From: Rubrivivax sp.
GTDB taxonomy: Bacteria; Pseudomonadota; Gammaproteobacteria; Burkholderiales; Burkholderiaceae_C
DNA: 64,000 bases
Direction: 5' to 3'
NCBI GenBank assembly: GCA_027484825.1
Contig: JAIXSE010000020.1
Span: 1 to 64,000 of the forward strand
Below the pieces are notes generated by a model. The model was not told where the DNA came from. It saw only the letters and a program-made list of their open reading frames with translations, and did no database searches. A program made the position numbers and the translations under genes. How positions within the stretch are numbered: the stretch's first letter is position 1; each line of letters starts with the position of its first letter. Of the stretch, positions 7,776 through 43,242 are shown piece after piece.

Positions 7776-7811
7776 AGGGGGGGGGTGAGAGGGTAGGTCT
7801 CGCGGGCCGGC

Positions 7812-10589: not shown

Positions 10590-10590
10590 C

Positions 10591-10620: not shown

Positions 10621-10627
10621 CTTTCGA

Positions 10628-10671: not shown

Positions 10672-10713
10672 AAGCCGCTGGCCCTTCAGGCGCGCGGCTC
10701 CCCCGCCCAGGCC

Positions 10714-11193: not shown

Positions 11194-11211
11194 GGGTTGG
11201 GATCTCGATGA

Positions 11212-11802
11212 TCAGCCCTGGCGCGCCGGGCGCTGGGCTGATTTGGGACGGAAAGCGGCGCAGACCTCGTCCCGCGTTTCCAGATAAGGGCCGCCGATGA
11301 GGTCGATGCAGTAGGGCACGGCGGCGAAGATACCCCGGGCAGCCGGATGGCCGCCCAGCGTTTCCGCAATGGCCTTGGGCTGGCCCGGCAGATTGATGAT
11401 GAGCGAGCGGCCCCGGATCACCGCCACCTGGCGGGACAGGATGGCCGTGGGCACAAAATGCAGCGAGATCTGCCGCATCTGTTCGCCAAAGCCCGGCATT
11501 TCGCGGTCGGCCACGTCCAGCGTGGCTTCCGGGGTCACGTCCCGTGGGGCCGGGCCGGTGCCGCCGGTGGTGAGCACCAGGTCGCAGTGGGCCTCGTCCA
11601 CCAGCGCCCGCAGGGTGGCGGCGATGGTGTCGCGTTCGTCCGGAATCAGTCGCGGCTCGAACTGCAGCGGGTTGATCAGGGCGCGGGTCAGCCAGTCCTG
11701 CAGGGCGGGAACCCCCTGGTCCGCATACACGCCGGTGGAGGCGCGGTCGCTGATGGAGACGATGCCGATGCGCACCGGCTCGACCGGACGCGGGTCAGTC
11801 AT
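11212..11802 (-). CDS. mogA: Molybdopterin adenylyltransferase MogA
   Basis: Adenylates molybdopterin ahead of molybdenum insertion in molybdenum cofactor synthesis. The 196-residue product starts MTDPRPVEPVRIGIVSISDR, carries the MoCF_biosynth nucleotide motif LTTGGTGPAPRDVTPEAT, and the later NLPGQPKAIAETLGG motif. Length fits the family. The longer open frame upstream reads through darP's acidic C-terminal tail in another frame and is not part of the protein. The start overlaps the end of darP by 8 bases, indicating coupled translation. Confidence 0.94.
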   Translation of the reverse strand: MTDPRPVEPVRIGIVSISDRASTGVYADQGVPALQDWLTRALINPLQFEPRLIPDERDTIAATLRALVDEAHCDLVLTTGGTGPAPRDVTPEATLDVADREMPGFGEQMRQISLHFVPTAILSRQVAVIRGRSLIINLPGQPKAIAETLGGHPAARGIFAAVPYCIDLIGGPYLETRDEVCAAFRPKSAQRPARQG

Positions 11803-12421
11803 CGCGGTCGTCCCCGTGGTCGCGCTCATGGTCACTCTCAGGGCCGTGCTGGTGATCGTCGTCCAGCTCGTCCGCATCCTCGCTGGCGCTGCCATCCGCC
11901 CGGGACTGGGCCAGCACCTGCGACTTGATCATCTGGAACAGTTCCCGCCAGGCCCGGCCGTTGCGCTGCTCGGGCGCCTGTGCGCGGTCCTTGCGGGCGG
12001 CACGGATGAGGCTGCGCAGTTGCTGCACATCGGTGTCGGGGAAGGTGTCGATGTAGTCCTGCAGGGCGGCGTCTTCTTCCACCAGTCGCACACGCCAGCG
12101 TTCGGCCTGATGCAGCTGCAGGCTGTCCTGGGCGCGGCCCAGCTTGAATTCGGCGACGGCTTCGCGGATGGGCGCCGGGTCGACATGGCGCATCAGCTTG
12201 CCGATGAGCTGCAGCTGACGCCGCTTGCCTTCATGGGCGCTCTTGATGCGCCGGGCTTCCGCCAGCGCGTCCATCAGTGAGTCGGGCAGGTTCAGTGCGG
12301 CCACCCGCTTTTCGGGCAGGGACAGCAGCTCCACCCCCAGCGCCTGCAGGGCGGCCATGTCCCGCTTGAGCTGGCTCTTGCTGGGGCGTTCGTCGTCGGG
12401 ATCTTCGTATTCTTCGTACAT
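11795..12421 (-). CDS. darP: Ribosome-associated protein DarP/YjgA (DUF615)
   Basis: Binds late 50S ribosomal precursors and promotes maturation of the peptidyl transferase centre. The 208-residue protein begins MYEEYEDPDDERPSKSQLKR and continues with the conserved SKSQLKRDMAALQALG, LPDSLMDALAEARRIKSAHE and LIGKLMRHVDP blocks of the family. The last 30 residues are Asp/His/Glu-rich and extend beyond the usual end. It is divergent from pmbA, an arrangement conserved widely in beta- and gammaproteobacteria. Confidence 0.94.
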   Translation of the reverse strand: MYEEYEDPDDERPSKSQLKRDMAALQALGVELLSLPEKRVAALNLPDSLMDALAEARRIKSAHEGKRRQLQLIGKLMRHVDPAPIREAVAEFKLGRAQDSLQLHQAERWRVRLVEEDAALQDYIDTFPDTDVQQLRSLIRAARKDRAQAPEQRNGRAWRELFQMIKSQVLAQSRADGSASEDADELDDDHQHGPESDHERDHGDDRDD

Positions 12422-12497
12422 GAGGCAATGAGGGCGAGGCCGGCCGGGACCGGCGCAGGGCCCGTATGATAGTTCTTTGCACCAGATTCGAGATCTC

Positions 12498-13865
12498 ATG
12501 AGTCAAGCCCAACAAGGATTTGCCTACAGCCAGGACCAGTTTCGCCAACTGATCGAGGACGTCCTCGCCGAAGCGAAGCATCTGGGCGCGTCGGATGCCG
12601 GCGCCGAAGTGTCCGAAGGCTGCGGCTTGTCCGTGTCGGTCCGGCGGGGCGATCTGGAGAATGTGGAGCGCAACCGCGACAAGTCCCTGGGCATTTCCGT
12701 CTACCTCGGACAGCGTCGTGGCAATGCCAGCACCTCCGATTTCTCGCCCAAGGCCCTGAAGGACACCGTCCGCGCCGCCTTCGACATCGCCCGTTTCACC
12801 GCCGAAGACGAATTCGCCGGCTTGCCGGCGGATGACGAGCTGTCCCTGGACGAAGACAGCCGGCCGGCCCTGGACCTGTTCCATCCCTGGGACATCACCG
12901 CCGAAGCCGCCGCCGAACTGGCGCTGCGCTGCGAGCGCGCCGCGCTGGACGTGGACCCGCGCATCACCAATTCCGAAGGCGCCGCCGTCTCGGCGCAGCA
13001 ATCCCATTTCTTCACCGGCAACAGCCGGGGCTTCCGCGGCGGTTATGCCAGCTCGCGGCATTCGCTGTCGGTGGCGCCCATCGCTGGCCGTGGCGCCGGC
13101 ATGGAGCGGGACGCCTGGTACAGCTCCATGCGAGACGCGGCGGAGCTCTCCAGCCCCGAGTCCATCGGCCGTTACGCGGCCGAACGGGCCCTGGCGCGCC
13201 TGAAGGGCCGCAAGGTCAAGACGGCCAATGTCCCGGTGCTGTTTGAATCGCCGGTGGCGGCCGGCCTGCTCGGCGCGCTGGTGCAGGCCACCAGCGGAGG
13301 GGCGCTGTACCGCCGCGCCACCTTCCTGCTGGACAGCCTGGACAAGCCGGTGCTGGCCTCCCACATCGACGTGGTGGAGGACCCGCACATCCTCAAAGGC
13401 AAGGGCAGCGCCCCCTTTGACGACGAAGGCGTCATCACCCGTCCGCGCACGGTGGTGGAAGGCGGCACGCTCAAGGGCTACTTCCTGTCCACCTATTCGG
13501 CCCGCAAGCTCGGCCTGCGCACCACCGGTCATGCCGGCGGCTCTCACAACCTGACCATGCGCAGCCGCTGCACCGCACCCGGCGATGACCTGCCCACCAT
13601 GCTGCGTCGCCTGGGCACCGGCCTGTTCGTGACCGAGCTGATGGGGCAGGGCGTCAACTACGTGACCGGCGACTATTCGCGTGGCGCCAGCGGCTACTGG
13701 GTGGAGAACGGCGAGATCGCCTTCCCGGTGAATGAAGTGACGATTGCCGGCAACCTGCGGGAGATGTTCCAGCAGATCGTGGGCATCGGCGCCGACACCT
13801 ACAACCTGGGTGCCAAGTCGGTGGGCTCCATCCTCATCGCCAACATGAAGCTGGCCGGCTCCTGA
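12498..13865 (+). CDS. pmbA: Metalloprotease-like protein PmbA (TldE)
   Basis: Partner subunit of the TldD/TldE peptidase that processes microcin B17 and degrades CcdA in E. coli. The 455-residue protein starts MSQAQQGFAYSQDQFRQLI and has the modulator-of-gyrase family core (LGISVYLGQRRGNASTSDFS, then GTGLFVTELMGQGVNYVTGDYSRGASG toward the end, read as adjoining segments). As expected for the E subunit there is no HExxH zinc motif. tldD is not in this window. The ATG at 12498 gives the family length; an in-frame ATG at 12477 is less likely. Confidence 0.94.
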   Translation: MSQAQQGFAYSQDQFRQLIEDVLAEAKHLGASDAGAEVSEGCGLSVSVRRGDLENVERNRDKSLGISVYLGQRRGNASTSDFSPKALKDTVRAAFDIARFTAEDEFAGLPADDELSLDEDSRPALDLFHPWDITAEAAAELALRCERAALDVDPRITNSEGAAVSAQQSHFFTGNSRGFRGGYASSRHSLSVAPIAGRGAGMERDAWYSSMRDAAELSSPESIGRYAAERALARLKGRKVKTANVPVLFESPVAAGLLGALVQATSGGALYRRATFLLDSLDKPVLASHIDVVEDPHILKGKGSAPFDDEGVITRPRTVVEGGTLKGYFLSTYSARKLGLRTTGHAGGSHNLTMRSRCTAPGDDLPTMLRRLGTGLFVTELMGQGVNYVTGDYSRGASGYWVENGEIAFPVNEVTIAGNLREMFQQIVGIGADTYNLGAKSVGSILIANMKLAGS

Positions 13866-31346: not shown

Positions 31347-32672
31347 TCAGCGGCGCGCACGCAGTTGCAGCAGACGCTGGGCATCGGCCAGGGCGGTGGC
31401 GATGTCCTTGTTGCGATCCAGCACCTTGTCCAGCTCGGTGTCGATCACCTCGCGGGCAAAGGCGTCCTGCTTGTGCACCGGGACGGCGCGGATGTGGTGG
31501 GCCGCCTCCCGCCAGTCGCGGCGGGCGCTCTGGCCGCCCAGAAATGGCAGCGGCAGGTCGAAGAACGGGTCCGTCTGCGCGTCCACCAGGGCGGGGAAGG
31601 CATCCTGCGACTTGAAGGCGGCCAGTTGCAGCTCGCGGTTCAGGGTCATGAAGCGGATGAATTCATAGGCCAGGGCCTTGCGGGACGGGTCGGACAGGCG
31701 CGGCATGGCGAAGTAGGTGCCGCCATAGGCCGCGTAGGCGCCTTCCGGCAATTGCGTGGCGCGCCAGCGGCCGCGGGTGTCCGGGGCCAGCCAGTTGTTC
31801 AGGTGGCCGGCCAGCCAGGCGCCCGACATCTGGGTGGCGATGCCGCCGCGCTTGAAGCCTTCGGTCCAGTCCGAGGACCAGGCGGCGACCCGGGCGTCCA
31901 GCTTCTGGCGTCGCACGGCGCGGGCCAGTTCGAAAGCGCGGACAAAGCGCTGCGAAGTCACCAGCGGACGGGACTGGTCATCGAAGTACAGGCCTTCACC
32001 CGGCTGCAGGCCGGTGCGGATGAGGATGTCCTTCATGTCCCGCGCATGCGCCATCAGGTAGGCGCCGGTGGTGGCCTTGATCCGCACGCCGGCGGCGATG
32101 TAGCCCTCCCAGGTGGTGGTCAGGTCCTGCTCGGTCAGGCCGGCGCGGGCCAGCAGGTCGGTGCGGTAGAGGAGGGTGCCGGGGGCGATGTCGGTCGGCA
32201 CGGCCACGACGGCGCCCTTCGCGGTGGTGGCCTGGTCAAAGGCGTAGCGGACGAAACGGTCGCGCTCGCGCACCAGGGAGTAGGGCGGCTGGGACAGGTC
32301 CAGCAGCCCGGTGCCCTGGGAAAAGCGGCCCAGGTAGGGAATCTCCAGCGCCATCACGTCCGGCAGACCCTTGGCGGTGGAGAGTGCGGTGGTCATGGCC
32401 GTGTGGTGGTCATTGACCTCACGGCTGAGGACTTTGACCTCGACCTCCGGATGAACGGCCCGCCAGGCGGGCAGCGCGCTGCGCACGATCTCGTCGATGG
32501 CGGGGAAGGCGGCAACGGTGAGGGTGACCGTCGGGGCCGGGGCGCGACTGCTACCGGCGGGGGGCGTCGCGGCGCCGTCCGCAGCCGCCGTAGCCGGGGC
32601 GACCAAAGCACCGAGGGCGCCGCCCAGACAGGTCAGCGCCAGCGCTGACAGATGATGAATCCACCGCCGCAT
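31347..32672 (-). CDS. Sugar ABC transporter substrate-binding protein
   Basis: A 441-residue periplasmic binding protein. A signal peptide (MRRWIHHLSALALTCLGGAL, cleaved near ATAAADG) precedes an Ala/Pro-rich spacer and a family 1 extracellular solute-binding domain (VTLTVAAFPAIDEIVRSALP, later MTTALSTAKGLPDVMALEIP). It is the first gene of the importer operon, 25 bases downstream of a LacI-type palindrome. The ATG at 32672 is chosen over a TTG immediately before it. Specificity is presumably a beta-glucoside, from the linked hydrolases. Confidence 0.91.
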   Translation of the reverse strand: MRRWIHHLSALALTCLGGALGALVAPATAAADGAATPPAGSSRAPAPTVTLTVAAFPAIDEIVRSALPAWRAVHPEVEVKVLSREVNDHHTAMTTALSTAKGLPDVMALEIPYLGRFSQGTGLLDLSQPPYSLVRERDRFVRYAFDQATTAKGAVVAVPTDIAPGTLLYRTDLLARAGLTEQDLTTTWEGYIAAGVRIKATTGAYLMAHARDMKDILIRTGLQPGEGLYFDDQSRPLVTSQRFVRAFELARAVRRQKLDARVAAWSSDWTEGFKRGGIATQMSGAWLAGHLNNWLAPDTRGRWRATQLPEGAYAAYGGTYFAMPRLSDPSRKALAYEFIRFMTLNRELQLAAFKSQDAFPALVDAQTDPFFDLPLPFLGGQSARRDWREAAHHIRAVPVHKQDAFAREVIDTELDKVLDRNKDIATALADAQRLLQLRARR

Positions 32673-32700
32673 CAAGCGTGTCTCCGTGATTGATCTCGTT

Positions 32701-32716
32701 ATGAAAGCGCTTTCAT
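32701..32716. promoter_or_regulatory. LacI-family operator upstream of the ABC importer operon
   Basis: Perfect 16-bp palindrome ATGAAAGCGCTTTCAT located 29-44 bases upstream of the binding-protein start codon. A -10-like TATCAT directly abuts it on the minus strand. Same core as the sites before the GH30 gene and the TonB receptor. It lies between the regulator gene and the importer operon, so the regulator could repress the importer without blocking itself. Confidence 0.8.
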
Positions 32717-32825
32717 GATAAGCGCTAACCCGTTCGGGAATGATCAGGGTTACTGCTGAAGGACGGGGGTGTGGAGCTGTTGCGAGCTGTCACGGCCTGT
32801 CATGGCCCGCCACGGGGGATGGGGC

Positions 32826-33848
32826 TTAAAGCGCCCGCGTGGAGGAGCGCACGATCAGCCGGGGCTCCGGCAACTGCGCGGTCGGCTTGGTGCCGGCCAG
32901 CAGGTCCAGCAGCGCTTGCGCGGCGCATCGGCCGAGCTCCAGGCCGGCCTGATGGATGGTGGTCAGCGGGGGAATGCTGTGGGCGGCGCCCGCCAGATCG
33001 TCGAAGCCCACGATGGACACGTCTTCAGGCACGCGAATGCCGCGCCGGTAGAGCGCCAGCGAGGCGCCGAAGGCCATCTGGTCGTTGGCTGCAAAGATGG
33101 CGGTAAAAGGCTCACGGCTGTTGATCAGTTGCTCCACCGCCAACACCCCGCTGTCTTCATGGAACAGGCCGGGCAGGACCAGCGCCGGCTTGTATTTGAT
33201 GCCAGCGGCTTCCAGCGCCGCCCGGTAACCGCGCAGACGCTCCTGCGCGTCCGGATGCACCGGATCCCCGGCGATGAAGGCGATCTTGCGGTGGCCCAGG
33301 GACAGCAGGTGATCGGTGGCCAGCCGGGCGCCCTCGAAGTCGTTGAAGTTCAGGGAACACAGGCCGGTGGCCTTGAGCGACCGACCGGTGACCACCACCG
33401 GCAGCTCCTTGGCCATCTTGCGCAGCGCATCGTCGGACAGGCGCCCGGTGAGCACGATCATGCCGTCCACCCGGCGGGAGCGAAGGGTGTCGATGCAGCG
33501 CTGCTCTTCCTTGGCGCTCCAGTGGCCGCTGGCGAAGAGCGGGCAGTAGCCGGCGGCGGCCAGCACTTCCTCGATGCCGCGCAGGGCGACGCCGTAATAG
33601 GGGCTGTCCAGGCTCTGGGTCACCACGCCGACGCTGAGCGACCGGCCGCCGGCCAGCAGCCGGGCGATGGGATTCGGGACAAAACCGAGTTCCGCGATGG
33701 CGCGGTCCACGGCATCCTTCTTTTCCTGACTGACCACCGCAGTGCCGTTCAGGATGCGGGAGACGGTGCTGGGCGAGACGCCGCTGGCCTCGGCCACCAT
33801 GCCCAGCGTCACCTTGGCGGATGGGCGGGCGGTCTTGGAACTCTTCAT
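32826..33848 (-). CDS. LacI-family transcriptional regulator
   Basis: A 340-residue repressor. The N-terminal helix-turn-helix reads KVTLGMVAEASGVSPSTVSR followed by ILNGTAVVSQEKKDAV, then the hinge GFVPNPIARLLAGGRS. A periplasmic-binding-protein-like sugar domain follows (SLSVGVVTQSLDSPYYGVAL ... IVGFDDLAGAAHSIPPLTTI). It is the natural reader of the three TGAAAGCGCTTTCA palindromes in this locus. It lies upstream of the importer operon on the same strand with a 150-base gap. The effector is presumably an imported beta-glucoside or its breakdown product; this is inference. Confidence 0.92.
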   Translation of the reverse strand: MKSSKTARPSAKVTLGMVAEASGVSPSTVSRILNGTAVVSQEKKDAVDRAIAELGFVPNPIARLLAGGRSLSVGVVTQSLDSPYYGVALRGIEEVLAAAGYCPLFASGHWSAKEEQRCIDTLRSRRVDGMIVLTGRLSDDALRKMAKELPVVVTGRSLKATGLCSLNFNDFEGARLATDHLLSLGHRKIAFIAGDPVHPDAQERLRGYRAALEAAGIKYKPALVLPGLFHEDSGVLAVEQLINSREPFTAIFAANDQMAFGASLALYRRGIRVPEDVSIVGFDDLAGAAHSIPPLTTIHQAGLELGRCAAQALLDLLAGTKPTAQLPEPRLIVRSSTRAL

Positions 33849-34079
33849 GGGCGGCGGGTAGGTCTGTGAAGGAGTGAGGGTTCGTTACCCGGGCGAGTTT
33901 AAGCGCGTCGAACGGGTGGCAAAAGGCGGCAGTTGGGGGAGGCGGGAGTGCCGATTGCCCGCAGTTCGACCCGTTTCTCGTACGAGAATGTTCGTCGTGG
34001 GGGGTGTTGGGGGTGGAACTCCTGCGCTTCCTGGTCCTTTTTTCACATAGGGGATGGCCGCTTGAGCCATCCGACTGCC

Positions 34080-34439
34080 ATGCCTTATGCCGTCCTGGTC
34101 GACGACAACCTTGAATCGAGTGAAACCCTGTCCATTCTTCTGGAGATGGAAGGGTATGAGACGGCCATGGCGGCGTCCTTGAAGGAGGCGCGTGCGCGCA
34201 TTGCGCAGCGACGCCCGGATGTGATGGTGCTGGATCGGACCCTGCCGGACGGGCAGGGGATGGATTTCATCGTCGAGGCGCTGAGCCATGGGCCGATGAC
34301 CATCGTGCTGCTGACCGGGCTGTCGGATCCGGCGGATGCGAAGGAAGCGATTCGGCGTGGGGCGGCGGCGTATTTGGTCAAGCCGGCGACGATTGATGAG
34401 TTGAAGGCGGTGCTGGATAAGGCGGCGCAGAAGGTGTGA
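34080..34439 (+). CDS. Orphan single-domain response regulator
   Basis: A 119-residue receiver-only protein: acidic pair in YAVLVDDNLESSETL, phosphoacceptor in DVMVLDRTLPDGQG, Thr in VLLTGLSDP and Lys in YLVKPATIDEL. No output domain and no kinase gene are adjacent. The ATG at 34080 directly starts the receiver; the open frame upstream is unconserved. Diffusible receivers like this usually serve a kinase elsewhere, so its pathway is unknown. Confidence 0.87.
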   Translation: MPYAVLVDDNLESSETLSILLEMEGYETAMAASLKEARARIAQRRPDVMVLDRTLPDGQGMDFIVEALSHGPMTIVLLTGLSDPADAKEAIRRGAAAYLVKPATIDELKAVLDKAAQKV

Positions 34440-34524
34440 CTGGCGGGGCGTGCCTGCTCGCGACAGCTGACCGCTTATCCAGTGAGGACTGAAGGGTGCC
34501 GCTCAGCGTTTCCGTGTGAGCCTC

Positions 34525-34548
34525 CGCTCCCCGATTTGCGGGGGAGCG
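34525..34548. terminator. Hairpin between the receiver gene and the glycosyltransferase
   Basis: CGCTCCCC and GGGGAGCG form an 8-bp stem with an 8-base loop, about 85 bases after the receiver stop. There is no clear T tract, so it may be a weak terminator or just a transcript-end hairpin. Confidence 0.35.
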
Positions 34549-34695
34549 CCGATTCGGCTCTTCATCGACCTCACACAACGCGTATCCTCTCGTAACAGAC
34601 CCCGGCCATGAAGACGCCTCAACGGCGCGAAGGCTTCCGGCGCTGCCTTGCTGGCCGCGTGTGGCAGCAAGAGCCGGGTCCACGAAGAGGGCCCC

Positions 34696-35670
34696 TTGAA
34701 TACTGCTTACCTGATTCAGGCGCATACCGCGCCAGCGCAGCTGCGCCGACTCGTCGAACTGCTGTCGCACCCCAACGTCGGCATCTTCATCCACGTGGAT
34801 GCCAAGGTCGATGCCACTCCCTTTGAATCCTTGAAGACCCTGGGCCCGCACTTTTGCAGCGGTGCTGAACGGGTGAAGGTTCATTGGGGGGATTACTCCC
34901 AGCTCGAAGCGACTTTCTCGTTGATGAGGGCGGCGTTTGCTGCGCCGCGGCGCTTTGATCGCTTCGTGCTTCTCAGCGGCATGGACCTCCCATTGCAGTC
35001 GGCTTCGGCGCTGCAGTCTTTCTTCGCTGCGCATGCGGATCGGGAGTTCATCAATCTGGTTCCGATGCCCAGTGCCAAAGCCAACAAACCAGAGAGTCGG
35101 CTGACGGAACGCTGGTTTCGCCCCACGCTGCTCGGGAAGATCCAGCGGCGACTGGTGCGCTATGGGCTGATGGCCAGGCAGCGTGATTACCGACCCGCTT
35201 TCGCCGATTTGCAGCCCTACGGCGGCAGTCAATGGTGGGCATTGACGCGTGATTGCTGCGAGACCCTCCTCAAGGAAGTGGGCGCACGTCCGGAGCTCAT
35301 CCGATTCATCCAGAACACCGCGTGCGCGGACGAGACCTTGGTGCAAACCATCGTCGGGAATTCTGTTTTTGCCGGAAATGTCTCGCGTGCGCTGACCTTC
35401 ACACGCTGGCGTTCTGGGGCGTCGAGTCCGGATGTCTTGGGTGCGGACGATATGGAGCAACTGCTGCGCCATCCTGTGCATCCCGATGATGGACCTTATG
35501 GAGGGGGACCCATTCTGTTTGCACGCAAGTTTGATGAGACGACGTCGGCAGCCGCAGTGGCGCGATTGCGGGCTTTTCATCAAATGCCCGAGGCAATGCA
35601 GTCTGGCGGGCACGAAGCGGCTGATGCGGGCCAACTGGATAGTCCATTGCCACCGTTAGGGCTGGCTTGA
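34696..35670 (+). CDS. Core-2/I-branching type beta-1,6-N-acetylglucosaminyltransferase family protein
   Basis: About 324 residues. The start NTAYLIQAHTAPAQLRRLVE, the FIHVDAKVDATPFESL strand and the LLSGMDLPLQS motif are typical of the bacterial branch of PF02485 glycosyltransferases. Later blocks include GSQWWALTRDCCETLL and CADETLVQTIVGNS. It probably transfers a sugar in surface polysaccharide or glycoprotein synthesis; donor and acceptor are unknown. A TTG at 34696 with an upstream AGAGGG is the likeliest start; a TTG at 34648 is possible. No other polysaccharide genes are adjacent. A relic of a second copy's C-terminal end lies at 37765. Confidence 0.82.
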   Translation: MNTAYLIQAHTAPAQLRRLVELLSHPNVGIFIHVDAKVDATPFESLKTLGPHFCSGAERVKVHWGDYSQLEATFSLMRAAFAAPRRFDRFVLLSGMDLPLQSASALQSFFAAHADREFINLVPMPSAKANKPESRLTERWFRPTLLGKIQRRLVRYGLMARQRDYRPAFADLQPYGGSQWWALTRDCCETLLKEVGARPELIRFIQNTACADETLVQTIVGNSVFAGNVSRALTFTRWRSGASSPDVLGADDMEQLLRHPVHPDDGPYGGGPILFARKFDETTSAAAVARLRAFHQMPEAMQSGGHEAADAGQLDSPLPPLGLA

Positions 35671-35728
35671 CGGCCAAGGCGTCGTCCGGGCTAGGTAGCC
35701 GTATGGATTCGCTGAAGTGGGGCAGGTG

Positions 35729-36553
35729 ATGGATTCGTCCGAACACGCTGTGAGATCGAAGTCCGGAAAACTCTGGCCGCTACACCTGATGGTGCTAATG
35801 GCCTTAACGCAACAGGCGCCATGCATGGAGTACAAGGTGGGCGATAAAGCTGCATCGGATGTTTTTACTGACGATGGGCTGCGTCGTCTTGCGCAGGCGG
35901 CCTGCGAGGGAGACGAGCGCGCGGTCCGCAGCGCGGTACAGCGGGGTGCCAATCCTAACGGCGCCGGGCTGCGCGGTATCACCCCTCTTGTGTGGGCCGT
36001 GAGCTGCGACAGCGTGGCGGGCGTCAATGCGCTCTTGGCGGCCGGCGCCAACCCCAATCAAGCAATCGGCGATGAGTACACGTCCGTCGTTTATATGGCC
36101 GTCAGGCGCGACGACCCCGCCCCACTCAAGGCCCTGTTGGATGCCGGGGCTGAGGCCAATGTGTACAGCTTGAAGTCGGAACGCACGGGCATCAGCCAGG
36201 CTCTGCTACACGGGATCGACACGGGCGACTGGCGTCATTGGGAGCTGATGCTCCCCAAGGTGGACATCAACCGGCCGCACGACAAGTTCGGGGAGACCAT
36301 TGCTATTAGGGCAGCGAGGCTCAACCAGTTCGAGCGCGTAGTGCAGCTGCTGGAAAAGGGCTACAGCTATCAGCTCATACGGCTTGGACGCGCAGTGGAG
36401 GTTGCCGAGAATCTGACCGAGCCCTTCGCATCCTGGCAGCGCAAGGCCGTAGAAATGCTCAAAGCGCGCGGGGTGGTCTTCCCGGTGGGGCCGACGAAGG
36501 TTCAGACCATCACCGATGAAGAGCTGCGGCGGCTACCGGCCAACCGGCGGTAA
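35729..36553 (+). CDS. Ankyrin-repeat protein
   Basis: A 274-residue protein with a hydrophobic N-terminal stretch (LWPLHLMVLMALTQQAPC) that could be a signal or lipoprotein sequence, followed by ankyrin repeats from about residue 50 to 160. These are recognisable as LAQAACEGDERAVRSAVQRG, TPLVWAVSCDSVAGVNALLA with AGANPNQ, and APLKALLDAGAEANVYS. Ankyrin repeats mediate protein binding; single secreted ankyrin proteins occur as partners or immunity-like proteins near effectors, but no effector is visible here. Start at 35729 is tentative. It is followed in the same frame by an orphan coding fragment. Confidence 0.72.
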   Translation: MDSSEHAVRSKSGKLWPLHLMVLMALTQQAPCMEYKVGDKAASDVFTDDGLRRLAQAACEGDERAVRSAVQRGANPNGAGLRGITPLVWAVSCDSVAGVNALLAAGANPNQAIGDEYTSVVYMAVRRDDPAPLKALLDAGAEANVYSLKSERTGISQALLHGIDTGDWRHWELMLPKVDINRPHDKFGETIAIRAARLNQFERVVQLLEKGYSYQLIRLGRAVEVAENLTEPFASWQRKAVEMLKARGVVFPVGPTKVQTITDEELRRLPANRR

Positions 36554-36754
36554 TGCACGACCGAGGTCCGGCAGGGCATTCCAGGCAAAGAGTTCATAAC
36601 GACACCGCACGTACTTTGGATCGATGAGCCCGGCTTCACACTGCGCTTTGATGTGTGCAGCAGGCAGCGCATCTACCAGGATCAGTTCAACGTCCTGCAA
36701 CGGACCTATGGTGCAGACGCGACGTTCAGCGTCCGCCGCCGACTGGGATTCTGA
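36554..36754 (+). pseudogene. 5'-truncated coding fragment of unknown family
   Basis: Directly after the ankyrin gene's TAA, the same reading frame stays open for 66 codons to a TGA. It reads like a genuine protein C-terminus: TTPHVLWIDEPGFTLRFDV followed by RIYQDQFNVLQRTYGADATF and RRRLGF. No start codon precedes the conserved-looking part, so it is either the tail of a gene whose 5' end was lost or a former extension of the ankyrin protein cut by the TAA. The stop is two bases before the next gene's ATG, as in an intact operon. Family not recognised. Confidence 0.45.
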
Positions 36755-36756
36755 CA

Positions 36757-37590
36757 ATGAGCAATAGGCAAACGACGCGGCTATTACTTGGCACGCTCAT
36801 CGTGACTAGCGCCAGCTGGGCTCTGTGCCAGCCCTCGGGCGTACGCAGTCTGATCTTGAGGAAAGATGTCAACGGTATGTTGATTGGCAATGACAAAAGG
36901 CCCGGGCAGCGCCTGACGGTCGGGGTGGGCGACAGCCTGACGAAGTTGGCACAGCGCAATGCGTTTCTGAATCAACTCAGCGTGAATGAAGGGCAGGAAC
37001 TTCGGCTGTCACTGGAAACCACGCTTGAACCACATTACGACGATGGGGATATCAAGTTCGACGTGGATTGCGTGATGAGCGCAAATGTTGATGGCAACAA
37101 GCGCCTCCCACAGGGCGTGACATTGGTTGGACTGACGTTGTGTGAGCCGCCACTGAACGACTGGGAGGCTGCCGTCGCCAAGGCGGCGGAGATCATGAGT
37201 CGCTTCGAGAAACAGAATCCGCAAGCAACTGACCTGCGCGCGTTCTACCTCTCGGCCACTGAGCCTGAGTTGCAGGCGATAGGTGGCAAGACTTGGCGCA
37301 AGTCTGAGCAGGACCTATTCGCGCTACTGACGCCACAGCAAGCCAGGGCCAAGTTTGCAAAGGAGGCCGCTGGAGGTCACGAAGAAATCATAAGCGGGCG
37401 TTGGAAGAACAGCCTTGCCAACGTTGCGATTTACGCAGGCAAGAAGGCACTGTTCCAGATTGGCATATCTAAGAGCGCCAACTTCGGCGGCAATAACCTC
37501 ACCGAGGAACAGCGGCGCACGATGCGCTACGAGATCACGATGAGCTTCCGGTTACGCAACGACGTTGATCCGGCGGCGCTGCAGCCGTAA
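36757..37590 (+). CDS. Hypothetical exported protein
   Basis: A 277-residue protein starting MSNRQTTRLLLGTLIVTSASWALCQ, a clear signal peptide with cleavage near WALC-Q. The mature part shows no motif I recognise. It has two Cys in FDVDCVMSAN and LTLCEPP, and a C-terminal strand-rich region ending MRYEITMSFRLRNDVDPAAL. Probably periplasmic or surface located. It follows the fragment at 36554 by two bases and may share a transcript with the ankyrin gene. Codon use and GC are lower than in flanking housekeeping genes, in line with an acquired segment. Confidence 0.65.
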   Translation: MSNRQTTRLLLGTLIVTSASWALCQPSGVRSLILRKDVNGMLIGNDKRPGQRLTVGVGDSLTKLAQRNAFLNQLSVNEGQELRLSLETTLEPHYDDGDIKFDVDCVMSANVDGNKRLPQGVTLVGLTLCEPPLNDWEAAVAKAAEIMSRFEKQNPQATDLRAFYLSATEPELQAIGGKTWRKSEQDLFALLTPQQARAKFAKEAAGGHEEIISGRWKNSLANVAIYAGKKALFQIGISKSANFGGNNLTEEQRRTMRYEITMSFRLRNDVDPAALQP

Positions 37591-37764
37591 TGGTTCAGAG
37601 CCGGCGCGTGGATGGGGGTGAATGGCCGGGGTCAGGTCGTTAGTCGCCCCTGCAAATCGCCCAAGCCATTGTCGCGCAACGCCTTTCGGGTGATTTCCAA
37701 TAGTGCGATCTCCCGGGAAGTATTCCAATGGAGTGCAGTTCTGGCAGATTGAGCACTGCCGGCC

Positions 37765-37878
37765 ATGGCCACCGACGACTTCGACAGCGTCTACGGCCGG
37801 GGACCTATCCTCTTCGCGCGCAAGTTTGACGCCGCCACTTCGGCGCAAGCGGCCAAGCTGCTCGAAACAACGACCTGA
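37765..37878 (+). pseudogene. Relic of a second glycosyltransferase C-terminus
   Basis: A 37-codon open stretch encoding GRGPILFARKFDAATSAQAA and a stop. The block GPILFARKFD is identical to the C-terminal part of the glycosyltransferase at 34696, and the codons around it are similar at DNA level with many silent changes. In-frame stops upstream (37750) show there is no intact gene. It marks an old, decayed paralogue or the far end of a duplication. The rest of the 37591-37954 interval has no other gene that I can support. Confidence 0.7.
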
Positions 37879-37954
37879 GATCGAGCCTCTGCCACCGGCC
37901 ATCTGCGACCAGTCGCCAGTCGAGGCCTCATTCACTGAGGCATCATGCGCGTCC

Positions 37955-38590
37955 ATGAGTTACGACATCCCCGCCCTCATCCTTGAACTGCTCGACTGGC
38001 TCGGCACCATCGCCTTCGCCGTCAGCGGCGCCCTGGTGGGTGTGCGCAAGCGCTTCGACCTGTTCGGGGTGCTGTTCCTGGCCTTCGTGGTGTCCGTCGC
38101 CGGCGGCATGATTCGCGACGTGCTGATCGGCGCCATACCTCCGGCCGCCATGGTCGAGATCCACTACTTCGTCATCGCCGTGCTGTCGGGTTTGGCGACG
38201 TTCTTCTGGTCCGCCTACATCGTCCACTACCAGCGGCTGATGCAGTTCCTGGACGCGCTCGGGCTGGCTTTGTTCGCGGTGGTGGGCACCCAGAAGGCCA
38301 TCCAGTTCGGCATTCACCCGGTCATGAGCGCCCTGATGGGCATGATCACCGGCATCGGCGGCGGCATGATCCGCGACGTGCTCAGCGGGGAGATCCCCTT
38401 CGTCCTGCGTGCGGACCTTTATGCGCTGGCGGCGCTGATGGCCGGCGCCGTGGTCGCGTTGGGGCACTATCTCGAACTGCCCCCGGTGTATCCGGTGCTT
38501 GCGGGCGCCGGACTGTGCATGTTCCTCCGAATGATGGCCATCTATCACGGATGGCGTGCGCCGCTGCCCAGGTCTATCCACGAGGATTGA
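37955..38590 (+). CDS. TRIC/YicG-family (UPF0126) membrane protein
   Basis: A 211-residue inner-membrane protein with about seven hydrophobic helices and the duplicated family motif: GGMIRDVLIGAIPP near residue 50 and GGGMIRDVLSGEIPF near residue 140, each after a VGVRKRFDLFG or TQKAIQFG segment. Prokaryotic members form trimeric potassium-permeable channels in structural studies; others have been linked to glycine uptake. The ATG at 37955 starts directly before the first helix; the longer frame runs through the relic region. It is convergent to the sigma-54 activator gene apart from the intervening 1.3-kb segment. Confidence 0.9.
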   Translation: MSYDIPALILELLDWLGTIAFAVSGALVGVRKRFDLFGVLFLAFVVSVAGGMIRDVLIGAIPPAAMVEIHYFVIAVLSGLATFFWSAYIVHYQRLMQFLDALGLALFAVVGTQKAIQFGIHPVMSALMGMITGIGGGMIRDVLSGEIPFVLRADLYALAALMAGAVVALGHYLELPPVYPVLAGAGLCMFLRMMAIYHGWRAPLPRSIHED

Positions 38591-38636
38591 CCCCGGCCTT
38601 CAGCGGAAATCTTCCAGCTGAATCTCATGCCGGTGC
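38591..38636. repeat. Direct repeat A: copy of the 3' end of the sigma-54 activator gene
   Basis: 46 bases that match 39915-39960 at 40 positions, in the same orientation. Read on the minus strand it encodes HRHEIQLEDFR and a stop, against HRHGIQLDDFR and a stop in the intact gene. It begins immediately after the stop codon of the TRIC-family gene, so without the 1.28-kb intervening segment the TRIC and activator genes would be direct convergent neighbours. Comparable to duplicated gene ends left by integrating elements. Confidence 0.8.
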
Positions 38637-38671
38637 GAGACCAATTTCATCGCAAAGAACGTGCGGCAGGC

Positions 38672-38854
38672 ATGATCGGGCTACCTGTGGCCACAATTGC
38701 AGCTGTTACTTCTGCGTGTGCGGCTACTATTGGAGTCGTTGAAAATCGCGGCATAGGAGATGAATTCTCACAACTAAAACCGTGGGGTGCTCTGTATTAT
38801 TCAATCTTCGCGTTCAATCTGGTTGGTAGAGCACAAGAAAAAGTTCTTACTTGA
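38672..38854 (+). CDS. Small hypothetical protein
   Basis: A possible 60-residue protein, MIGLPVATIAAVTSACAATI followed by a short soluble tail ending GRAQEKVLT. The first 25 residues are hydrophobic. It lies inside the low-GC segment between the direct repeats; no family was recognised and no clear ribosome site is seen. It may be a remnant rather than a gene. Confidence 0.3.
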   Translation: MIGLPVATIAAVTSACAATIGVVENRGIGDEFSQLKPWGALYYSIFAFNLVGRAQEKVLT

Positions 38855-38862
38855 ATCACTAA

Positions 38863-39039
38863 GCCAATGCTGGCGGCTTCTTCAGTTCACGCGACAGAAT
38901 TCTTGAAGAAGATGTTCTCGCAGACTTGCGCCGTGTCCCGACCTTCCATATTGTTGGCGCCAGCGCTGAACCGTCGGACCAAGTCCCAGCAGGGGTAGAG
39001 ATTAAGTGCATCGGTCCTTCAGGCTGTGCCCATAACTGA
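38863..39039 (+). pseudogene. Open coding-like fragment in the low-GC segment
   Basis: 58 codons without a start, between an in-frame TAA and a TGA, reading SRDRILEEDVLADLRRVPTF then HIVGASAEPSDQVPAGVEIK and ending GCAHN. Composition looks protein-like, suggesting the tail of a lost or frameshifted gene. It is in a different frame from the small ORF at 38672. Family unknown. Confidence 0.3.
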
Positions 39040-39156
39040 TTGTGAATGTCAACTTAATCAAAACGGTGGAAACGCAACTCGTCGCTCTAAACTATGGATT
39101 TTCCACGGCACGCGACCAGATGTTTTCCTCAGAATTGGCATTTCCTTGAGAATAAA

Positions 39157-39696
39157 ATGTCATTTTCTTTAAAGTCAATTGCAGTCTGCCTTCTATTAAC
39201 CCCAATCTCATCATTTGCGGAGGAGAGAAGCTTCGGCTTTAATTTTGCAAATACCGTTGCTGGCGAGCTGAGTATTGTCAAAAGCGTTGGCGATGATGAT
39301 GAGATATTTTTGATGGGGAGGAGAATTCTGAATGGTGATGCGAAGCATGTTCTTTGGTTTGTCGCAGATGCGAGACCTGCGGTTGGTTCGGCTTCAATTG
39401 TTTTGCTTGGCTTTGACTCGGGGGATAATTCGTGTCGGTTTATGTACCGAATTATTGATTTTTCGAATTCGACGATGGGTCGCTTAACTCCGGAATTTGG
39501 CGATTGTTCCGAATATTCATATAAAAGCAGCTTGAAGGCAGGTGCGCCAGGAAAGTCTATTCCTGCGGCTTGGGTGCTCTCCGGGTTTTCTGGTGGAGAT
39601 GCTGAATCTGGTGCGCAGTTTGTGTATCGTGACGGGAAAATTTTTCGAGGCGGCAGGCAAATCACAGGGGTAGAGGAGACTTTTTCGGAGCCTTGA
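39157..39696 (+). CDS. Hypothetical exported protein in low-GC segment
   Basis: A 179-residue protein starting MSFSLKSIAVCLLLTPISSF with a signal peptide cut near SFA-EE. The mature part has two Cys (DNSCRFMY, EFGDCSEY) that could pair, and no recognised domain. GC content is well below the rest of the window and codons such as TTT, AAT and ATT are frequent, marking foreign DNA. The start at 39157 is chosen for the signal peptide over an ATG at 39094. It is the only substantial gene between the two 46-bp direct repeats. Confidence 0.6.
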   Translation: MSFSLKSIAVCLLLTPISSFAEERSFGFNFANTVAGELSIVKSVGDDDEIFLMGRRILNGDAKHVLWFVADARPAVGSASIVLLGFDSGDNSCRFMYRIIDFSNSTMGRLTPEFGDCSEYSYKSSLKAGAPGKSIPAAWVLSGFSGGDAESGAQFVYRDGKIFRGGRQITGVEETFSEP

Positions 39697-39914
39697 CTGG
39701 TTCAAGTTTGGATTCGGTTACTGCCAGTCGTGGGATGGTCTCCTGGGGCATGCAGCCAACATATGACAGCAGGCTCAAGACTCTTCGAGTGGGACCGGCG
39801 AGTACTCGTCGGGGGGGGGAATACACCGGCCAGTGCCTTCGAAGATCCGGGCGAGGCGCATGAAATCTGGACGCGGATGTCCTTGAAATGCCCAGGCCCA
39901 TCCTCAATGAATGA

Positions 39915-39960
39915 GCCCGACCCTCAGCGGAAATCATCCAGCTGAATCCCATGCCGATGC
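39915..39960. repeat. Direct repeat B: 3' end of the sigma-54 activator gene
   Basis: The intact counterpart of the repeat at 38591. It covers the last codons of the activator (HRHGIQLDDFR and stop) plus about 9 bases beyond. The two copies bracket a 1.28-kb low-GC segment. No integrase gene lies between them, so if this was an integrated element it is now a remnant. Confidence 0.8.
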
Positions 39961-41264
39961 AGCTTGTCGTAGAGCGTCTTCCTCGGCGTCCCCAGCAGCT
40001 CCATCGCGGCGGGCACCTTGCCCTGCGTCCTGCGTAGCGCCTGCTCGATCAGCGCCTTCTCCACCAGCTCCATCTGCCGCGCCAGATTCAGGCTGGGCAG
40101 ATCCCGCAGCGCGGCCTGGCTGTCCAGGTCATCCAGCGCCAGCACAAACCGATCGGCGGCATTGCGGATCTCCCGCACATTGCCGGGCCAGTCATGGGCC
40201 ATCAGCTCACGCAGCTTCTCCGGCGTCAGTTCCGGGGCAGGGCGCTCATACCGCGCGCAGGCCTGCGCCACGAAGTGCTCGAACAGCAGCGGAATGTCTT
40301 CCCGGCGCTCCCGCAGCGGTGGCAACTGCAGCGTCGCAATGTTCAGCCGGTAGTAGAGGTCATTGCGAAACTGCCCCCGGTCTCCCAGTTCCTTCAAATC
40401 GGCCTTGCTGGCGGCAATGAAACGCACATTGATCGGCAGTTCTTCATTGGACCCCAGCCGCTCGATCCGCCGCTCCTGCAGCACTCGCAGCAGCTTGATC
40501 TGCAGTGGCACCGGCATCGTCTCGATCTCGTCCAGCAGCAGTGTGCCGCCGTTGGCATGCTCGATCTTGCCGATGCGCCGCTTGGCCGCCGAGGTGAACG
40601 ACCCCGGCTCATGCCCGAACAATTCACTTTCGAACAGCGCCTCCGGCAGACCGCCGCAGTTGATCGCCACAAAGTGACGATCCCGCCTCGGGCTCTGGTC
40701 ATGCAGGCAGCGCGCCACCAGTTCCTTGCCGGTGCCGGTCTCCCCCAGAATCATCACGTCCGCCGACGTCCCCGCCAGATTCAGAATCTGCCGCCGCAAC
40801 TGCTGCATCGCCGCCGACCGGCCCAGCAGCACCGCCTCGATCCCGCTGGCCCGCTGCAACTGCGCCCGCAGCTCTTCGGCGGAATGTCGCAGCATGCGCA
40901 GGTCCAGCGCCCGCATCACGGCTTCGAGCAGCCGCTCCGGCGCAAAGGGCTTTTCGATGAAGTCATAGGCGCCGGTGCGCATGGCCTGCACCGCCATCTG
41001 CACATCCCCGTGCGCGGTGATCAGGATCACCGGAATGCCGGGGTCGGTGGCCCGCACATGGTCCAGCAGGGCGCGCCCGTCCATGCCGGGCAGACGCACA
41101 TCCGTCACCATCACCACCTGCGCACCCGGCTGGATGTGCGGCAGCGCTTCCTCCGCGCTACGGCAGGGCAGCACCTCCAGCCCTTCGAGCTCCAGCGTCT
41201 GCGTCAGGCTCACCCGCACCGGCAGGTCGTCTTCCACAAACACGACCTTGTAGCCTTCAAACAT
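39924..41264 (-). CDS. Sigma-54-dependent response regulator (DctD-like)
   Basis: A 446-residue enhancer-binding protein. Receiver at 1-120 (phosphoacceptor in MVTDVRLPGMDG, Lys in FIEKPFAPER). AAA+ domain at about 145-375 with Walker A LGETGTGKE, sensor strand GGTLLLDEIETMP and arginine finger RFIAAS/LYYRLN region. C-terminal Fis-type helix-turn-helix ends GTPRKTLYDKLHRHGI. The sigma-54 contact loop reads GSFTSA rather than the usual GAFTGA. Its end overlaps nothing on its strand; its start overlaps the sensor kinase stop by 8 bases. A consensus sigma-54 promoter is found just beyond the kinase gene, before livH. Confidence 0.93.
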   Translation of the reverse strand: MFEGYKVVFVEDDLPVRVSLTQTLELEGLEVLPCRSAEEALPHIQPGAQVVMVTDVRLPGMDGRALLDHVRATDPGIPVILITAHGDVQMAVQAMRTGAYDFIEKPFAPERLLEAVMRALDLRMLRHSAEELRAQLQRASGIEAVLLGRSAAMQQLRRQILNLAGTSADVMILGETGTGKELVARCLHDQSPRRDRHFVAINCGGLPEALFESELFGHEPGSFTSAAKRRIGKIEHANGGTLLLDEIETMPVPLQIKLLRVLQERRIERLGSNEELPINVRFIAASKADLKELGDRGQFRNDLYYRLNIATLQLPPLRERREDIPLLFEHFVAQACARYERPAPELTPEKLRELMAHDWPGNVREIRNAADRFVLALDDLDSQAALRDLPSLNLARQMELVEKALIEQALRRTQGKVPAAMELLGTPRKTLYDKLHRHGIQLDDFR

Positions 41265-43242
41265 GCCCTTGTTCCTCCACAGTCCAGGTGTCGACCGCCA
41301 GGTCGAACTCCAGGCTCATGCCCGGGTCGAGCCGATGCGCACGCAGCGTGCCGCCGAACTCATGCACGATCTTCGATGAAATCACCAAACCCAGCCCCAG
41401 GCCTTCGCCAGCCGGCTTGGTGGTGAAAAACGGTTCAAACAGACGCGGCAACAGGGCCTCGTCCAGGCCCGGTCCGTTGTCCTGAATCTTGACCAGGACG
41501 CGCTGGCCGCCTTCAAGCGCTTCGACGCCCACGCGCAGCGTCATCGCTCGGTCTGCACCCACAGGCCCCGGTGTTGCCTCATCATTCGAGGCCACCGCCG
41601 CGCCCGCATCCTCCAGCATCGCGTCCAGCGCATTGGCAAACAGGTTCACCAGCACCTGCTCCAGGCGGTTGGCCTCCGCCCGCACCCGCAGGCCTTCCGG
41701 CACCTCCACCTCAAACTGCAGCGGCTGTCCGCGCGTGCGGTGCTCCAGCAGCAGATAGGCATTGCGCACGCTCGCCAGCAGCGGGGAGGGCGAGTCCACC
41801 CCCTCGGCCTTGCGCGCAAAACTCTTGAGCTGTCGGGTGATGCGGCCCATGCGCTCCACCATGTCGTCCATGGCTTGCAGATTGTCCGCCACCGCCTGCG
41901 TGCGGCCGTTTTGCAGCAGCCGCTGCGCATTGCGGGCCAGCGCTCGCAGCGCCGTCAGCGGCTGGTTGACCTCATGGGACAAGCCCGCCGACATCTGCCC
42001 CAGCACCGCCAGCTTGCTCGCCTGCAGCAATTCGCCTTCGGTCTGCTCGCGCTGGGCGATCTGCTCCTTCAGCGCGTCGTTGGACTGCCGCAGTTCCGCC
42101 GTGCGTTCATCCACGGTGCGTTCCAGTCGCGCGTGGGCATCCTGCAGCTCGGTCTTGGCCACAAACAGCTGCCGCACCGCCCGGCGACGCGCCGCCAGAT
42201 ACAGGGCCAGCATGCCCACTGCCGCACCAAAGGCCGCGCCGCTCCAGGCCGCCAGCCGCGCCTGCCTGCGCACCTCGGTCAGGTCGGACAGGGCCAGCAG
42301 CCGCAGCCCCAGCGGCAGCAGTTGCCGCTCCTGTGCCAGCACGGTGGTGCTGGCCGGTGCCGGCGCCCGCACCAGCAGGCTGTTGTAGGCCTCCAGCACG
42401 GCCGGCAGGCCCAGGTTGGGGCCCACCGCCTGCGGGTAACGGGCGCTGGCCTGCAGATGCGCGCGCTGAGCGTCGTCCGCCTCGCTCAGCACCGCATACT
42501 TCCAGGCCTGGACGCTGCTCATGATGACCACGCCCTGGTCATCCGCCACCAGAATCCGCTCCCCTTGCGAGCGCAGGCCCAGATCCACCCAGGTGGCCTC
42601 CAGCGGTGCCAGATTGAGCTTGACCACGATGACGCCCAGCAGACGCTGCTGGCGCCGCACCGTCTGCAGCAGGAAGAAGTTGGTGCTGCCGATGGCCGAC
42701 CCATCCACCGGGCTGGCATCGGACGCGAAGAAGTGATGGCGGTCCTGCGCGATGGCCAGCGCCAAGCCGGGTGGGGCCAGCAGCGGCTCGCTGGCGACCA
42801 GGACCGAGCCGTCCGCATTGGCCACGAAGATCTGGGTGGTACCGGCCCGCACATTCACCCGCGCCAGCGCCTGGCTCACCCGGTGCCGCAACTGCTCATC
42901 ATCCGGGTGCTGCATCAGCCGCTCGACCTCTTCGTCGATGGCCAGCAGGCTGGGCAGGTAGGCATGCCGGCTCAGTTCGGTCGACAGGTTGGCCGCATAC
43001 AGCTCCAGCCGTTCCGTCGCCAGGGCGGAGAGCTGGTCCAGGCTGGCGCGCTCACTCAGCCGGTGGCCCAGCACCAGGCCCAGCATCATCAGCACCCCGG
43101 TGAGGTAGAGATAGAAGCTCGGCCGGCTCACCACCCGCGACAGCCGTTGCCGCAGGCGCAGTCCGGTCGCGGTGTCGGGACTGCTGCCAGAGCCGTTGTC
43201 GGCGGCAGTGTCCGGGGACGAAGAAGACGGAGGCGTCAACAA
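41257..43242 (-). CDS. Membrane sensor histidine kinase (DctB-like)
   Basis: About 660 residues. A first membrane helix (FYLYLTGVLMMLGLVLG), a periplasmic sensing region of about 260 residues, and a second helix (AAFGAAVGMLALYLAARRR) are followed by a coiled coil (AELRQSNDALKEQIAQREQT). The kinase core follows: GLSHEVNQPLTALRALARNA with the phosphorylated His, NLFANALDAM, DNGPGLD and GEGLGLGLVISSKI. The layout is that of DctB, which senses C4-dicarboxylates in rhizobia; ligand here is unknown. The start is uncertain: TTG at 43242 or GTG at 43344 (adding about 34 residues) or an internal GTG. It overlaps the activator gene by 8 bases. Confidence 0.9.
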   Translation of the reverse strand: MLTPPSSSSPDTAADNGSGSSPDTATGLRLRQRLSRVVSRPSFYLYLTGVLMMLGLVLGHRLSERASLDQLSALATERLELYAANLSTELSRHAYLPSLLAIDEEVERLMQHPDDEQLRHRVSQALARVNVRAGTTQIFVANADGSVLVASEPLLAPPGLALAIAQDRHHFFASDASPVDGSAIGSTNFFLLQTVRRQQRLLGVIVVKLNLAPLEATWVDLGLRSQGERILVADDQGVVIMSSVQAWKYAVLSEADDAQRAHLQASARYPQAVGPNLGLPAVLEAYNSLLVRAPAPASTTVLAQERQLLPLGLRLLALSDLTEVRRQARLAAWSGAAFGAAVGMLALYLAARRRAVRQLFVAKTELQDAHARLERTVDERTAELRQSNDALKEQIAQREQTEGELLQASKLAVLGQMSAGLSHEVNQPLTALRALARNAQRLLQNGRTQAVADNLQAMDDMVERMGRITRQLKSFARKAEGVDSPSPLLASVRNAYLLLEHRTRGQPLQFEVEVPEGLRVRAEANRLEQVLVNLFANALDAMLEDAGAAVASNDEATPGPVGADRAMTLRVGVEALEGGQRVLVKIQDNGPGLDEALLPRLFEPFFTTKPAGEGLGLGLVISSKIVHEFGGTLRAHRLDPGMSLEFDLAVDTWTVEEQGHV

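What the first reader, a model, noticed from the sequence alone, without database searches (positions are those of the whole stretch)
34696..41264. Two neighbouring cargo segments, each bounded by a duplicated 3' end of a host gene
Seen in sequence: the glycosyltransferase (34696-35670) is followed by an ankyrin gene, an orphan fragment and an unknown exported gene, then by a relic of the same glycosyltransferase C-terminus (37765-37878). Separately, reading along the minus strand, the sigma-54 activator gene is followed by a low-GC segment and then a second copy of its 3' end (38591-38636). Both have the order gene, cargo, second 3' end, and they are back to back around one TRIC-family gene. 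Inference: a shared mechanism that inserts cargo at gene 3' ends, or repeated duplication and deletion at a hotspot.
Basis: partly seen in the sequence, partly recalled or inferred. Interest (0 to 1): 0.72.

Follow-up and report, generated by a model that had tools for sequence, protein, structure and literature searches.

The report
Gene-turnover hotspot between two regulator genes
In a Roseateles bacterium the gap between two neighbouring regulator genes holds different genes in different species, and the odd leftover gene ends seen here look like scars of one gene being swapped for another version and of one separate small insertion, an ordinary kind of bacterial genome change.

Summary
The sequence features are real but read differently once relatives are compared. 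The window is from Roseateles. In 10 of 16 genus genomes (window's own included) a response regulator faces the sigma-54 activator gene across 45-388 bp; in the window 5.5 kb lie between them, and R. terrae, R. depolymerans and an unnamed species each carry a different set: an accessory-gene hotspot. Junction 1: the 'relic' is not a duplicate of the neighbouring glycosyltransferase (GT). It is the 3' end of the resident R. depolymerans-type allele (87% over 101 nt), still in its place before the TRIC-type gene. The intact GT is another allele (sister to R. terrae's; AU test rejects grouping with R. depolymerans). The cargo's right edge is the left end of a truncated IS5-family element whose sixth transposase codon is fused to the relic. 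Junction 2: a 72-nt, 83% direct repeat holding the tails of both the TRIC-type and sigma-54 genes brackets a 1.25-kb low-GC insert; the four nearest relatives have one sigma-54 tail. Hotspot: supported. One shared 3'-end insertion mechanism: not supported. The ankyrin protein is a likely orphan immunity protein of the T6SS Tle6 type. New member of a known kind.

The parts
34083..34439 (+). small response regulator (left border of the hotspot)
   Evidence: PF00072; found facing the sigma-54 gene in 10 of 16 genus genomes
34696..35670 (+). intact glycosyltransferase (Core-2/I-branching), a different allele from the resident one
   Evidence: PF02485 E 5e-21; 64-77% DNA identity to all four relatives in the 250-bp steps 34750-35499, while G003 is 81% or more in every flank step compared; sister to the R. 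terrae allele 100/99
35717..36553 (+). ankyrin-repeat protein, probably exported, probable orphan T6SS Tle6-type immunity protein
   Evidence: Ank_2; 49% identity over 251 aa to a protein encoded directly behind a homologue of the T6SS lipase effector 7ubz
36554..36757 (+). orphan coding-like fragment
   Evidence: open stretch after the ankyrin stop codon; no convincing match in the one region tried
36757..37590 (+). protein of unknown family, probably exported
   Evidence: no match over any cut-off in Pfam, none in NCBIfam, PHROGs, PADLOC or PDB; only itself in 299 family genomes
37641..37782 (+). left end of a truncated IS5-family element, ending in transposase codon 6
   Evidence: 37626-37782 is 92% to a copy followed by a full transposase gene elsewhere in the same genome; transposase NF033578 E 2e-154
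37783..37882 (+). 3' end of the resident (R. depolymerans-type) glycosyltransferase and a few bases behind it; stop at 37876-37878
   Evidence: 87% over 101 nt to G003; 88% of 75 nt, others 61-71%
37955..38590 (+). TRIC/UPF0126-type gene (Pfam Gly_transporter), orthologue at this locus in 4 of 16 genus genomes
   Evidence: PF03458 E 2e-45
38565..38636 (.). left copy of the 72-nt direct repeat: TRIC tail + 9-bp spacer + sigma-54 gene tail
38637..39888 (.). low-GC insert with coding-like pieces
   Evidence: GC 0.49, 0.44 at lowest step; no DNA match in the other 15 genus genomes beyond the sigma-54 tail or in plasmids
39157..39696 (+). protein of unknown family inside the low-GC insert, probably exported
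   Evidence: only itself in 299 family genomes
39889..39960 (.). right copy of the 72-nt direct repeat (holds the working sigma-54 gene end and a TRIC-tail remnant)
39924..41264 (-). sigma-54-dependent response regulator (right border of the hotspot)
   Evidence: PF00158 E 1e-65; present in 16 of 16 genus genomes at 86-100%

Best explanation
The interval is an accessory-gene hotspot between two genes that face each other (response regulator and sigma-54 activator). Two separate events left the scars. Event 1 (replacement; shown: pieces of two GT alleles side by side; inferred: the steps): a chromosome segment carrying another GT allele, an ankyrin immunity-type gene, an exported gene and an IS5-family element took the place of the resident GT. 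On the left it probably joined by homologous recombination in the response-regulator/GT-promoter region; on the right the joint lies between IS transposase codon 6 and about codon 265 of the resident GT with at most 1 nt of shared sequence, so it is illegitimate. What is left of the resident GT is its 3' end. Event 2 (insertion): a 1.25-kb low-GC piece entered at the tail-to-tail junction of the TRIC-type and sigma-54 genes and left a 72-nt direct repeat of that junction, whose copies have since drifted. The likely gain is orphan immunity or envelope genes used in competition (inference).
For: Bounding genes face each other directly in 10 of 16 genus genomes, different contents in four. Relic 87-88% to the G003 (R. 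depolymerans) GT 3' end, 61-71% to the adjacent GT and the other three over the same 75 nt. Flank tree puts window with G003 (91/96, moderate), GT tree puts window GT with G001 (100/99); AU p 0.0036 against window GT + G003. Identity to G003 falls from 81-100% in the flank steps to 64-72% over the GT. The 157 nt left of the relic match an IS5-family left end in the same genome at 92%, and the match stops where the relic begins; joint compared, with the C2 IS and the G003 GT as stand-ins for the lost parents. Junction 2 repeat; one sigma-54 tail each in G001, G003, G012, G011. A similar mosaic (new module in front, old gene's 3' part shifted behind) is explained in Vibrio cholerae by homology-facilitated illegitimate recombination (PMC5361080, passages read).
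Against: No donor with GT-ankyrin order was found: 12 loci, of which 3 are the locus GTs already known, 3 are paralogues in the same three genomes and 6 are distant (26-33%). An old tandem GT pair with different losses would give the same tree conflict. The other three relatives also show low-identity steps (66-72%) at a few flank places (29250, 32500-32750, 41500, 43250), so low identity alone proves little for them. The ten genomes without the island may all lie outside the five-species group that has it (only two of them were put in the tree), so they may show the ancestral state and not loss and gain within a species. The window genome shows no ComEC match while the other 15 do (95%-complete draft), so uptake by transformation is not supported in this strain. 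The source of the 72-nt repeat is unexplained: long for a transposon target duplication (recalled) and no integrase found.
Confidence: 0.72

Rival explanations
1. Ancestral tandem GT pair: the ancestor of the five-species group had two GT genes in a row; R. terrae kept one, R. depolymerans the other, and the window kept the first whole and a stub of the second after an IS-linked deletion.
For: Two GT lineages lie side by side in the window; the tree conflict and the firm window-G001 pair are also what hidden paralogy gives; window, G001, G012 and G011 GTs share upstream sequence and G003's does not.
Against: None of the 5 genomes with a GT here has two complete copies; pairwise DNA identities of the five GTs are close to each other (64-70%), not two clear paralogue groups.
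Confidence: 0.2
2. Site-specific element: the low-GC insert is a small integrated element that uses the tail of the sigma-54 gene as attachment site, with the 72-nt repeat as its two attachment copies.
For: Direct repeat containing a gene 3' end on both sides, working gene end kept on one side, low-GC insert, single tail in relatives.
Against: No integrase or phage family among its two ORFs tested (one weak PHROG tail match at E 0.067); right copy not in plasmids, left copy not in phages, core pattern not in viral contigs, though these collections may hold few Roseateles elements; repeat runs across two genes and is only 83% identical; nothing comparable at junction 1.
Confidence: 0.08
3. One shared mechanism for both junctions that places cargo behind gene 3' ends.
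For: Same gross order at both junctions and nearness.
Against: Junction 1 has no duplicate of its neighbour but a stub of another allele fused to an IS piece; junction 2 has a true direct repeat, and no other-genome or plasmid match for an IS.
Confidence: 0.04

Closest known systems
Hotspots of horizontal transfer flanked by core genes (PMC5635113; passages read)
   Same: Different accessory genes between the same two conserved genes in different genomes; few mobile-element genes.
   Different: Here seen across 16 species of a genus, not within a species; recombination at the flanking genes was not measured.
Replacement by homology-facilitated illegitimate recombination, as in Vibrio cholerae T6SS immunity arrays (PMC5361080, passages) and small variable segments (PMC2884548, passages)
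   Same: New module next to conserved upstream DNA, old gene's 3' part left behind downstream of it; right-hand joint without homology.
   Different: The swapped gene is a glycosyltransferase, not an effector; a truncated IS sits at the joint; the homologous left joint is inferred only.
T6SS lipase Tle6 with ankyrin-repeat immunity protein Tli, PDB 7UBZ/9CYS (PMC11470151, passages)
   Same: The window ankyrin protein is a near full-length homologue of a protein encoded directly behind a 7ubz-like lipase in a genome of the same family.
   Different: No lipase gene beside it, and none found in 16 genus genomes with that one query (no positive control): an orphan.

Membership tests
Accessory-gene hotspot between core genes | same two neighbours, empty in some genomes, different cargo in others | tested here: met
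   10 of 16 with the two genes face to face, 4 with different contents; of the other two, G011 has GT next to the sigma-54 gene with no response regulator match on its contig piece, G007 has no response regulator match in the stretch taken
Homology-facilitated illegitimate recombination product | homologous joint on one side | tested here: inconclusive
   homology to relatives runs to 34439-34446 and resumes at 34579 (G001) or 34670-34697 (others) with the GT upstream region; the crossover itself cannot be placed
Homology-facilitated illegitimate recombination product | joint without homology on the other side, with loss of resident DNA | tested here: met
   IS codon 6 joined to resident GT at about codon 265, at most 1 nt shared, judged on stand-ins for both parents; only the GT 3' end found
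IS5-family element (truncated) | IS terminus and transposase start | tested here: met
   92% over 157 nt to a copy with a 482-aa IS5 transposase; 12 of 13 nt inverted ends in that copy, 6 of 500 shuffles as good
IS5-family element (truncated) | right end and target duplication | tested here: not met
   only about 142 nt of the left end remain, 37641-37782
Integrase-type element at junction 2 | integrase gene | tested here: not met
   no such family for ORFs 38627-38851 and 39094-39693
Integrase-type element at junction 2 | direct repeats from a gene 3' end | tested here: met
   72 nt, 83%
Tle6 immunity protein (Tli) | ankyrin repeats, exported, encoded beside a Tle6 lipase | tested here: inconclusive
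   homologue is beside such a lipase; the window copy is not; export judged by eye from the N-terminus; PDB search returned generic ankyrins in the 60 rows shown of 264

The most novel reading that the evidence does not exclude
The tail-to-tail junction of the TRIC-type and sigma-54 genes is an attachment site for a class of very small integrase-less inserts mobilised in trans, which carry single exported genes and leave a ~70-nt duplication spanning both gene tails.
Probability: 0.05. Interest if true: 0.6.

Novelty: new member of a known kind. Interest (0 to 1): 0.3.

Why it matters
It is a worked example of how gene 3' ends become stranded: here by replacement of an allele, with an IS at the broken joint, and not by copying of the neighbour. 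A stub next to a gene of the same family need not be a duplicate of it. The hotspot also gives a place to look for orphan exported (possibly immunity) genes in Roseateles.

Tried and rejected
Rejected: relic as duplicate of the adjacent GT. Rejected: both junctions made by one mechanism. Led nowhere: structure models of the two exported proteins, mean pLDDT 37 each from single sequences, not searched further; Rfam on 33800-41500, no match; homologues of the two exported proteins in plasmids, phages and viral contigs, none, and in 299 family genomes only themselves; cargo DNA in plasmids, none; ankyrin protein in plasmids, none at E 1e-10, in 399 order genomes only itself. In some searches at most 8 and 6 candidates a genome were scored, and 18 of 38-74, so absences there are soft. 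Homology beyond the ends of the 72-nt repeat: no better than shuffles (50 and 196 of 500 as good). Which repeat copy is the original could not be decided. The relic identities depend on where a few codons were placed; one search gives them without gaps. Literature: searches; the lists shown held no paper on this Roseateles locus; titles and abstract starts only, apart from passages of the four papers named.
Full report
What was checked. The gene calls of the finding hold: a Core-2/I-branching type glycosyltransferase (GT, PF02485), an ankyrin protein, a protein without family, a TRIC/UPF0126-type gene (PF03458) and, on the minus strand, a sigma-54-dependent response regulator (PF00158, PF00072). 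Both short repeats exist: 53 nt at 74% (35497-35549 and 37792-37844) and 72 nt at 83% (38565-38636 and 39889-39960). GC falls to 0.44-0.49 in the steps from 38750 to 39749. 'Exported' is judged by eye from N-termini throughout.

Organism and relatives. The window lies on contig C26 of a 5.66-Mb draft. G003 is the nearest in the flanks (sigma-54 gene 93.1% DNA identity, others 89.8-90.2%; flank tree 91/96).

The locus is a hotspot. The sigma-54 gene is present in 16 of 16 genus genomes, the window's included. In 10 of 16 (G002, G004, G005, G006, G008, G009, G010, G013, G014, G015) the small response regulator faces it with 45 to 388 bp between the matched ends (from regions; for G013 only 1000 bases were taken). 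In the window 5.5 kb lie between them. G001 has GT and the TRIC-type gene; G003 has an acyltransferase (PF01757), an orphan ORF (GC 0.53), GT and the TRIC-type gene; G012 has GT, a small membrane-protein-like ORF and the TRIC-type gene. G011 has GT next to the sigma-54 gene, without the TRIC-type gene, and no response regulator match on its contig piece; G007 shows no response regulator match in the stretch taken. GT is thus at this locus in 5 of 16 and the TRIC-type orthologue in 4 of 16.

Junction 1. Identity of the window to G003 is 81-100% in all flank steps compared, drops to 64-72% over the intact GT, is absent over the cargo, and returns at 87% at the relic. The other three relatives are 65-77% over the GT in the steps from 34750 to 35499; they also dip to 66-72% at a few flank steps. 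Over 75 ungapped nt of the relic G003 scores 88%, G012 71%, G011 69%, G001 65% and the adjacent GT 61%. A GT tree of 9 proteins (of the 13 matches; two pieces of a split paralogue in G012, the distant G013 match and the relic were left out) joins the window GT to G001 (100/99) and rejects it with G003 (AU p 0.0036), while the flank tree of 7 of 16 genomes joins window and G003 (91/96, below the 95 mark for bootstrap). So the stub is what remains of the resident allele, in its own place before the TRIC-type gene, and the intact GT is another allele. GT differs by 30-36% between the five species against 7-14% for the sigma-54 gene, so GT exchange at this site may be frequent (inference).

The right edge of the cargo. 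The 157 nt at 37626-37782 match the window's own genome at C2:117520-117676 with 92%, and the match ends where the relic starts; a second, partial copy lies 900 bp away (84%). At C2 the sequence runs on into a 482-aa transposase, IS5 family by NCBIfam (NF033578, E 2e-154) and by annotations of plasmid records. The first six codons of that transposase are fused to the relic, and the joint shares at most one base with the G003 GT, taken as stand-in for the resident one. The outer end of the IS is at about 37641-37643, judged from 13-nt imperfect inverted ends in the C2 copy (6 of 500 shuffles as good). Of the other 15 genus genomes, three gave 27-nt hits across the joint (37772-37798) and none a longer match to the IS stretch (at most 18 candidates a genome scored).

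Junction 2. Both copies of the repeat hold the last 26 nt of the TRIC-type gene, a 9-bp spacer and the last 37 nt of the sigma-54 gene. The insert therefore sits in a duplicated tail-to-tail junction. The window's genome has two such sigma-54 tails; G001, G003, G012 and G011 gave one match each. Homology does not go on past either end. The 1252-bp insert has no DNA match in the other 15 genus genomes beyond the gene tail or in plasmids. The right copy of the repeat is not in plasmids, the left copy not in phages, and a core pattern not in viral contigs. How the 72-nt duplication came about is not solved; insertion with duplication of the junction by template switching during repair is my best guess (inference).

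The cargo. The ankyrin protein is 49% identical over 251 aa to a protein in G296, the only other of 299 family genomes with a match at E 1e-15. In G296 it follows directly behind a lipase-like gene homologous to the solved T6SS lipase effector 7ubz (E 8e-16). [quoted passage not shown] The lipase query found nothing in 16 genus genomes (no positive control in that search). The window gene is therefore best read as an orphan immunity gene (inference). The other two exported proteins may be of the same sort, without evidence. The C2 region with the intact IS also holds an Imm49 gene and a CdiA_C-like piece just under its cut-off (26.0 against 26.6 bits), so this IS keeps company with toxin-immunity genes in this genome.

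Mechanism. The pattern at junction 1 (other module beside conserved upstream DNA, resident gene cut from its 5' side, 3' end left behind, no homology at the right joint) is the one explained for Vibrio cholerae immunity arrays by homology-facilitated illegitimate recombination (PMC5361080, passages) and proposed for small variable segments (PMC2884548, passages). PMC5635113 describes hotspots that lack recognizable mobile elements and show recombination at flanking core genes (passages). The ComEC family is found in 15 of 16 genus genomes but not in the window's 95%-complete draft, which speaks against present-day transformability of this strain or reflects a gap.

Verdict. Hotspot confirmed; duplicated-3'-end reading wrong at junction 1 and incomplete at junction 2; common mechanism unsupported. 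An ordinary kind of event, fairly well resolved; interest 0.3.

Noticed in passing
L084 (own genome C2:108000-127000), 7688-13391: Toxin-immunity region: an Imm49 gene, a CdiA_C-like piece just under cut-off, two orphan ORFs without family at GC 0.44-0.45, an intact IS5-family element and a partial copy of its left end.
   Followed up: partly
L045 (G003), reverse-strand positions 5546-8061: R. depolymerans carries an acyltransferase and an orphan ORF (GC 0.53) just upstream of GT in the same hotspot; homology to the GT upstream stretch shared by the other species is not found there.
   Followed up: partly
window 34696-35670: GT differs far more between species (30-36% DNA) than the sigma-54 gene (7-14%), which suggests frequent allele exchange or diversifying selection.
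   Followed up: partly
L045 (G003), reverse-strand positions 9050-9170, GT-TRIC spacer: Short tandem repeats (GGCTCTC and TGATCCC type units) between GT and the TRIC-type gene.
   Followed up: no
whole genome G000: No ComEC (PF03772) match in the window's genome while the 15 other genus genomes have one; gap or real loss.
   Followed up: no
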